Source: Verrucomicrobiota bacterium
GTDB lineage: Bacteria > Verrucomicrobiota > Verrucomicrobiia > Chthoniobacterales > SZAS-18
Length of the DNA: 35,485 nucleotides
Assembly (NCBI GenBank): GCA_019241085.1
Contig: JAFAXH010000094.1
Location: 1-35,485, forward strand
Direction: 5' to 3'
A program made the position numbers and the translations under genes. The notes beneath the pieces were generated by a model, which was not told where the DNA came from, did not search any database, and was given only the letters and a program-made list of their open reading frames with translations. Below, one piece after another: positions 21,193-21,625 of the stretch. How positions within the stretch are numbered: position 1 is the stretch's first letter; every line of letters starts with the position of its first letter.

Positions 21193-21259
21193 GACAAGTG
21201 ATTAAGAATCCAAGAAATTTTTCGCTGTTTTCAGCTCGTCAGTCGGAACACACATTCCG

Positions 21260-21300
21260 AAAAAAAGGCCCCTGAAAACGACAAGCGTCGACAGAGGGCC
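21260..21300 (-). terminator. Intrinsic terminator of the small membrane peptide gene
   Basis: On the minus strand a stem GGCCCTCTG pairs with CAGGGGCC (one bulge). A second inner stem CGAC/GTCG closes on the tetraloop GCTT. Seven T residues follow the outer stem (plus-strand A run at 21260-21266). It lies 26 bp after the stop codon at 21327, as expected for the end of a short mRNA. Confidence 0.85.
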
Positions 21301-21326
21301 ATAACTTGGTTCGCAGGTCGTTTGAG

Positions 21327-21413
21327 CTACCTCTTAAAGTAGTAAATCTCGATAACGACGAGGATTAGGCTAAGTATGGCAATCAAGAGCTTGCCACCAA
21401 GCACGATGTGCAT
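21327..21413 (-). CDS. 28-residue single-helix membrane peptide (novel small gene)
   Basis: The frame runs from ATG at 21413 to TAG at 21327. The peptide begins MHIVLGGK, continues with a run of Leu/Ile/Val/Ala (LLIAILSLILVVI, residues 9-21), then EIYYFKR. This is one membrane helix with a positive C-terminus. Directly upstream is AAGGGAGGTAAAC before the ATG, a near-perfect Shine-Dalgarno at good spacing; most genes in the window have none. A terminator follows. The frame has no other explanation on either strand. I do not recognise a family; size and shape recall small membrane regulators or accessory subunits such as KdpF, but there is no such partner nearby. Function unknown. Confidence 0.72.
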   Translation of the reverse strand: MHIVLGGKLLIAILSLILVVIEIYYFKR

Positions 21414-21430
21414 GTTTACCTCCCTTCCAG
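21414..21430 (-). promoter_or_regulatory. Strong Shine-Dalgarno site of the small peptide gene
   Basis: Minus-strand CTGGAAGGGAGGTAAAC ends at the ATG. GGAGGT is an exact anti-SD match, four bases before the start codon. It decides the start of the 28-codon frame and stands out because neighbouring genes show no comparable site. Confidence 0.8.
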
Positions 21431-21513
21431 TTTCCAGATCGAACGGCACCTATCGTTTCGTTTCGATTGGCACCTCGACCCGCCTCGACAGCTTTCGCTG
21501 GCAAGGTCATAGC

Positions 21514-21547
21514 CCACAAAGAGGCCTGTAACTGGCGCTCTTTGTGG
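21514..21547 (-). promoter_or_regulatory. Perfect hairpin in the leader of the small peptide gene
   Basis: CCACAAAGAG and CTCTTTGTGG form a perfect 10-bp inverted repeat. Inside, GCC and GGC can extend the stem with one bulge around a 7-nt loop. There is no T-run on either side in the right orientation for a terminator. It lies 101 bp upstream of the ATG and 30 bp downstream of the promoter-like sequence, so it may be a structured 5' leader or a protein-binding operator. Confidence 0.55.
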
Positions 21548-21577
21548 TCAAAAAATTATCAATGAACTGGTTCGGTC

Positions 21578-21604
21578 ATTATCTTGGCACGCCATCCGAG
21601 TCAA
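21578..21604 (-). promoter_or_regulatory. Possible sigma-70 type promoter for the small peptide gene
   Basis: On the minus strand TTGACT (21604-21599) is followed after 15 bp by GATAAT (21583-21578). Both boxes are one base from consensus, but the 15-bp spacer is short. It begins 22 bp beyond the tyrS stop, so the small gene could have its own transcript or be read from tyrS. Confidence 0.35.
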
Positions 21605-21625
21605 GATCGAATTCCGAGTAGTCCG

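What the first reader, a model, noticed from the sequence alone, without database searches (positions are those of the whole stretch)
21260..21604. Complete but tiny gene: ribosome site, 28-residue membrane peptide and terminator
In a gap between HIT and tyrS the minus strand carries, in order, a possible promoter, a perfect hairpin, an AAGGGAGGT ribosome site, a 28-codon frame coding for one membrane helix, and a stem-loop with seven T residues. The parts are seen directly. Such a strong ribosome site is rare in this genome, and the region is AT-richer. That this is a real, expressed small protein, perhaps a membrane-acting regulator or a type I toxin-like peptide, is inference.
Basis: partly seen in the sequence, partly recalled or inferred. 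Interest (0 to 1): 0.66.

Follow-up and report, generated by a model that had tools for sequence, protein, structure and literature searches.

The report
Tiny membrane gene abutting hammerhead ribozyme
In an uncultured Verrucomicrobia genome, a convincing but orphan 28-residue membrane-peptide gene has a strongly folded leader and a terminator that runs straight into a sequence with all the core features of a self-cleaving hammerhead ribozyme; none of it has been shown to be expressed or active.

Summary
On the minus strand between HIT and tyrS lie a promoter-like pair (10/12 matches but a short 15-nt spacer), a strongly folded leader, AAGGGAGGT, a 28-codon single-helix frame and a hairpin plus seven T. 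Shuffles of the gap give a comparable SD + very hydrophobic small frame in about 1 of 10,000. None of 15 neighbouring frames has such an SD.

Two things were missed. The leader (21570-21427) is predicted as a multi-branched domain closed by a 6-bp helix just before the SD (z = -4.8). The T-run is also the start of a complete hammerhead ribozyme motif (21264-21218): 6-bp stem I, CUGACGA, 4-bp stem II, GAA and 3-bp stem III. It is the genome's only RF00008 match at E <= 10 (22.6 bits, E 0.036, below gathering). A strict descriptor finds one such motif in 3.86 Gb of random sequence.

No homologue of peptide, leader or locus was found (213 order genomes, plasmids, phages), and tyrS neighbourhoods are not syntenic, so conservation is untestable here. 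Best reading: an independent small gene for a membrane peptide whose mRNA 3' end is made by terminator and/or ribozyme. Type I toxin remains speculation.

The parts
21578..21604 (-). Promoter-like TTGACT (21604-21599), 15-nt spacer, GATAAT (21583-21578); start site would be about 21571
   Evidence: Relaxed scan, 10/12 matches, spacer shorter than usual; not found by the 16-18-nt scan. Not shown to be active.
21427..21570 (-). Predicted structured leader: P1 (21570-21565 with 21432-21427) enclosing three hairpins (21547-21514; 21506-21483 with GAAA loop; 21482-21435), ending directly before the SD
   Evidence: MFE fold; 21560-21420 folds 4.8 sd below dinucleotide shuffles, 0 of 300 as stable. 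No homologue, so no covariation test.
21418..21426 (-). Shine-Dalgarno AAGGGAGGT, 4 nt before ATG; in the fold partly paired with codons at about 21370-21361
   Evidence: Sequence; genome-wide pattern count 82 vs 24 control; pairing prediction
21327..21413 (-). 28-codon ORF, one hydrophobic helix: MHIVLGGKLLIAILSLILVVIEIYYFKR, stop TAG
   Evidence: ORF list; hydropathy 2.76; shuffle test; no Pfam match
21260..21300 (-). Intrinsic-terminator-like hairpin (21300-21267) with TTTTTTT (21266-21260)
   Evidence: Fold -17.8 kcal/mol for 21312-21260; sequence
21218..21264 (-). Hammerhead ribozyme motif, type III arrangement: stem III UUU (21264-21262)/AAA (21220-21218), cleavage expected between 21261 and 21260, stem I 21260-21243, CUGACGA 21242-21236, stem II 21235-21224, GAA 21223-21221
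   Evidence: Rfam RF00008 22.6 bits, E 0.02 over all families, below gathering 48.5; only match in own genome, E 0.036; descriptor null; coordinates
21206..21312 (-). Predicted outer helix GAACCAAG (21312-21305) with CUUGGAUUC (21214-21206), enclosing terminator hairpin and hammerhead as one domain
   Evidence: MFE of 21312-21195; 21312-21200 folds 3.25 sd below shuffles

Best explanation
This is a small independent transcription unit downstream of tyrS, on the same strand. RNA polymerase starts near 21571, makes a 144-nt folded leader that ends just before a strong SD, then a 28-residue single-pass membrane peptide, and stops at an intrinsic terminator at 21260. Transcripts that read through form a type III hammerhead whose stem III uses the terminator's own U-run. 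It would cut between 21261 and 21260 and so give almost the same 3' end, cutting off the part that would run antisense into HIT. The peptide would insert in the membrane as a regulator of a larger membrane protein or as a weak membrane-active peptide. Shown from sequence: the elements and their improbability by chance. Inferred: transcription, translation, self-cleavage, and the peptide's role.
For: SD + hydrophobic small frame improbable in shuffles (1e-4). SD unlike the 15 neighbouring frames. Complete order promoter-leader-SD-ORF-terminator within 345 nt. Leader fold z -4.8. Complete hammerhead core with no mispair next to it (criteria in PMC3088659). 1 strict motif per 3.86 Gb of random sequence, so 2.3e-7 expected in this gap; 2.4e-4 for the loosest descriptor. 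No loose-descriptor hit in 2.57 Mb (strands summed) of other fetched sequence. Only RF00008 match in its genome.
Against: No homologue of peptide, leader or locus, so nothing is shown to be under selection. RF00008 score is far below gathering; it was found by scanning all 4227 families, with corrected E 0.02. Stem III next to the core is only three A-U pairs, and the site is U-U-U. In the minimal 66-nt piece the hammerhead fold (-6.5) is less stable than the MFE (-13.2). Promoter spacer is 15. Rare codons ATA, CTA, AGG; codon index 0.47 against 0.59-0.81 for window genes. Predicted fold hides SD and start.
Confidence: 0.5

Rival explanations
1. Structured non-coding RNA. The leader, terminator and hammerhead belong to a small RNA of about 310 nt; the 28-codon frame is incidental.
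For: Structure is in leader and 3' domain (z -4.8 and -3.25) while the ORF itself folds like its shuffles (z -0.5); no peptide homologue; SD predicted paired; unusual codons.
Against: A strong SD at ideal spacing before a frame that is almost wholly a membrane helix is a 1e-4 event in shuffles. No Rfam family other than the hammerhead clan fits. Single-sequence leader model found no homologue.
Confidence: 0.22
2. Type I toxin-like gene. The peptide is membrane-toxic; the folded leader and SD-hiding structure keep the full-length mRNA silent until processing; an antisense RNA or trans RNA is the antitoxin.
For: 28-residue single helix, structured mRNA with sequestered SD and AUG, complete small unit. 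Type I toxin mRNAs are commonly silent until processed (PMC11228461 abstract).
Against: No antisense promoter of 9/12 or better (best on the + strand 8/12), no second copy, no known family, no plasmid or phage relatives. 3' cleavage does not change the predicted SD pairing.
Confidence: 0.13
3. tyrS 3' untranslated region. No separate gene: tyrS transcripts run on through this stretch to the terminator, and the frame is chance or a second tyrS-operon cistron.
For: Same strand, 213 nt after the tyrS stop, and no terminator-like hairpin followed by T-run between tyrS and the small frame.
Against: Promoter-like pair begins 22 nt after tyrS; 86 relatives' tyrS loci show no such peptide, and the leader is absent from the 30 of them searched.
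Confidence: 0.1
4. The hammerhead match is chance or a dead relic and only the small gene with an ordinary terminator is real (this overlaps with the best explanation and is scored as a doubt about its ribozyme part).
For: Below gathering; weak A-U stem III; similar weak scores (up to 20.9 bits) elsewhere in the order, nearly all failing the core-and-stem descriptor; 8 of 14 control genomes show some match at E <= 10.
Against: Full core and no mispair adjacent to it, placed exactly at a terminator; descriptor null 2.3e-7 to 2.4e-4.
Confidence: 0.25

Closest known systems
Hammerhead ribozyme type III (Rfam RF00008)
   Same: Stem I closed, CUGANGA, stem II, GAA, A15.1-U16.1, H17; ends joined through stem III
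   Different: Below gathering score; core-proximal stem III is three A-U pairs borrowed from a terminator U-run, with the terminator hairpin inside the outer helix; bacterial examples in PMC3088659 are often near prophage integrases, none seen among the neighbouring genes scanned here
Bacterial single-pass small membrane proteins (regulators such as MgtS, AcrZ, CydX; from general knowledge)
   Same: Under 50 residues, one helix, own SD
   Different: No sequence relative found; no larger membrane-protein partner in the adjacent genes (HIT, tyrS)
Type I toxin mRNAs (Hok, TisB, AapA1; general knowledge, PMC11228461, PMC6733600)
   Same: Short hydrophobic peptide, highly folded mRNA, SD in structure, terminator
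   Different: No antisense RNA or promoter seen, no repeats, no family match; toxicity untested
Riboswitch-like leaders
   Same: Multi-branched domain closed by P1 just before an SD
   Different: No Rfam match, no homologues, no ligand candidate

Membership tests
Hammerhead ribozyme (type III) | Invariant core C3 U4 G5 A6 N7 G8 A9 / G12 A13 A14 / A15.1-U16.1 / H17 | tested here: met
   CUGACGA, GAA, A-U, U17 at 21264-21218 (criteria)
Hammerhead ribozyme (type III) | No mispair next to the core in stems I, II, III | tested here: met
   U-A, G-C and A-U close the three stems
Hammerhead ribozyme (type III) | Stems without multiple mispairs or bulges | tested here: inconclusive
   Stems I and II perfect; stem III has 3 A-U pairs, then an internal loop holding the terminator hairpin, then the outer helix
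Hammerhead ribozyme (type III) | Covariance-model score at or above the family's gathering cut-off | tested here: not met
   22.6 bits against 48.5
Hammerhead ribozyme (type III) | Self-cleavage | not testable with these tools
   Needs in vitro transcription
Intrinsic terminator | G+C-rich hairpin followed directly by a U-run | tested here: met
   21300-21260, -17.8 kcal/mol for 21312-21260, 7 U
Small membrane protein gene | SD plus frame with one transmembrane helix | tested here: met
Small membrane protein gene | Conserved frame in relatives | tested here: inconclusive
   No homologue found in order, class, plasmids, phages; but the genus holds only this genome and a 28-residue peptide diverges fast, so absence says little
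Type I toxin-antitoxin | Antisense RNA opposite the toxin mRNA | tested here: inconclusive
   No + strand promoter of 9/12 or better; no RNA data
Type I toxin-antitoxin | Toxicity on overexpression | not testable with these tools
   Needs expression in a laboratory strain

The most novel reading that the evidence does not exclude
A bacterial mRNA for a membrane peptide whose 3' end is built by a composite terminator-hammerhead: the terminator hairpin sits inside stem III and its U-run is the ribozyme's substrate strand, so termination and self-cleavage give the same 3' end and protect the convergent gene from antisense read-through.
Probability: 0.25. Interest if true: 0.8.

Novelty: new variant of a known kind. 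Interest (0 to 1): 0.5.

Why it matters
The biological functions of many bacterial hammerheads remain unclear (PMC3088659). One fused to an intrinsic terminator behind a single tiny gene would suggest a concrete job: making or securing an mRNA 3' end. It is directly testable with one in vitro transcription. The case also suggests that small-gene scans should look past the terminator.

Tried and rejected
Peptide relatives: a 19-nt DNA match in G003 lies in unrelated sequence; L015-L019 hits are longer frames or, in L017, a short frame without a start or SD. GGKLLIAI pattern in viral contigs gave only chance frames; an MHIVLGGK pattern gave none. Synteny: tyrS loci from 86 relatives hold neither HIT nor peptide. 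Leader covariance model from the single sequence: only self; other matches at E 0.05-0.5 over 213 genomes are what chance gives. CTGANGAG...CGAAA pattern over the order is too frequent to be informative. HCV_X3 and RAGATH-33 Rfam matches (E 2.3 and 6.9) rejected as chance. The search for related loci refuses a 28- or 40-residue query. Literature searches found no report of a hammerhead in Verrucomicrobia or one joined to an intrinsic terminator, within the open-access library only.

Full report
Setting. The window is contig C135 of a 3.4-Mb draft genome in 170 contigs, about 87% complete. Close tyrS relatives are Chthoniobacterales/Spartobacteria of Verrucomicrobiota. The genus has only this genome, and the family seven, in the collection. 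The gap lies between a HIT-domain gene (plus strand, ending 21192) and tyrS (minus strand, ending 21626).

Observation. The promoter-like pair TTGACT-GATAAT has 10/12 matches but a 15-nt spacer. The SD AAGGGAGGT is 4 nt from ATG. The frame is MHIVLGGKLLIAILSLILVVIEIYYFKR. The terminator hairpin 21300-21267 is followed by seven T. In 20,000 dinucleotide shuffles of the gap, an SD with a 20-60-codon frame is found in 6%, with a helix-like peptide in 0.17%, with hydropathy of at least 2.5 in 0.01%. Fifteen neighbouring frames lack such an SD when scored from their listed starts, which are not all certain. Genome-wide, GGAGGT-N3-8-ATG occurs 82 times against 24 for the reversed control, and this is the only one of those sites that opens a short membrane-peptide frame.

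Leader. The fold predicts a domain closed by CCAGUU/AACUGG, whose first base (21570) lies next to the expected transcription start and whose last base (21427) directly precedes the SD. It holds three hairpins, one capped by GAAA. It is 4.8 sd more stable than shuffles, none of 300 as stable. The frame itself is not unusually folded (z -0.5). SD and AUG are predicted mostly paired, the SD with codons within the frame. Folding of a single sequence is weak evidence, and no homologue was found for covariation.

Hammerhead. Scanning the gap against Rfam with a loose threshold gave Hammerhead_3 (RF00008), 22.6 bits, E 0.02 over all 4227 families, starting in the terminator T-run. The stretch has a perfect 6-bp stem I, CUGACGA, a 4-bp stem II with AAAA loop, GAA, and three A-U pairs of stem III, with H17 = U. 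This meets the core and core-adjacent rules used by Perreault and colleagues (PMC3088659); their rule against bulged short stems is doubtful for stem III. A random-sequence null with the gap's dinucleotides gave 1 strict motif in 3.86 Gb, 42 at medium and 1028 at loose settings, so 2.3e-7, 9.8e-6 and 2.4e-4 expected in this gap on both strands. The descriptor was written after seeing the hit, so the Rfam E of 0.02 is the fair corrected figure. It is the only RF00008 match at E <= 10 in its genome (E 0.036). Other genomes of the order reach at most 20.9 bits, with stricter filters that also lost the present match. No loose-descriptor hit occurs in 2.57 Mb (strands summed) of other sequence fetched here. 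In context, GAACCAAG upstream of the terminator hairpin pairs with CUUGGAUUC downstream of the core, so terminator and hammerhead fold as one domain, 3.25 sd below shuffles. In the short 66-nt piece the hammerhead fold is not the most stable one.

Homologues. None for the peptide in 213 genomes of the order, 384 of the class, plasmids or phages, none for the DNA, none for the leader. Since the nearest relative's TyrS is only 75% identical, a 28-residue peptide and an RNA could have diverged beyond detection. The absence therefore argues little for or against the gene.

Mechanism. The most economical account is a self-contained small gene. The terminator makes most 3' ends, and the hammerhead trims any read-through at the same place, keeping the antisense extension towards HIT off the mRNA. 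Whether cleavage happens, and whether three A-U pairs plus the outer helix suffice for stem III, is for the bench. For the peptide, a membrane-protein regulator is somewhat likelier than a toxin, because nothing antisense was found; both are inference.

Known kinds. Hammerheads are known in bacteria, often near prophage integrases, mostly without known function (PMC3088659). Small single-helix proteins and structured toxin mRNAs are known kinds too. What would be new is their joining: a ribozyme whose substrate strand is a terminator U-run behind one tiny gene. I therefore file it as a new variant of known kinds, with the ribozyme part unproven.

Noticed in passing
window 21494-21611, plus strand: The leader covariance model also matches the opposite strand (18.6 bits, E 0.0005), probably because the near-palindromic first hairpin folds on both strands.
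   Followed up: partly
L013 (G004:C80:30744-31916): tyrS of a family member is read with one in-frame TGA; sequencing error or pseudogene not distinguished.
   Followed up: no
L108 (G130:C20:269908-269947): Weak RF00008 match (19.6 bits) with CTGACGAGCCCCGGAAGGGGCGACGGAAA, a near-hammerhead with extra bases between stem II and GAAA.
   Followed up: no
order-wide, family f11 (e.g. G122, G123, G140, G147): CTGANGAG-N4-20-CGAAA is commoner than its reversed control in many f11 genomes; possibly codon bias, possibly real ribozymes.
   Followed up: no
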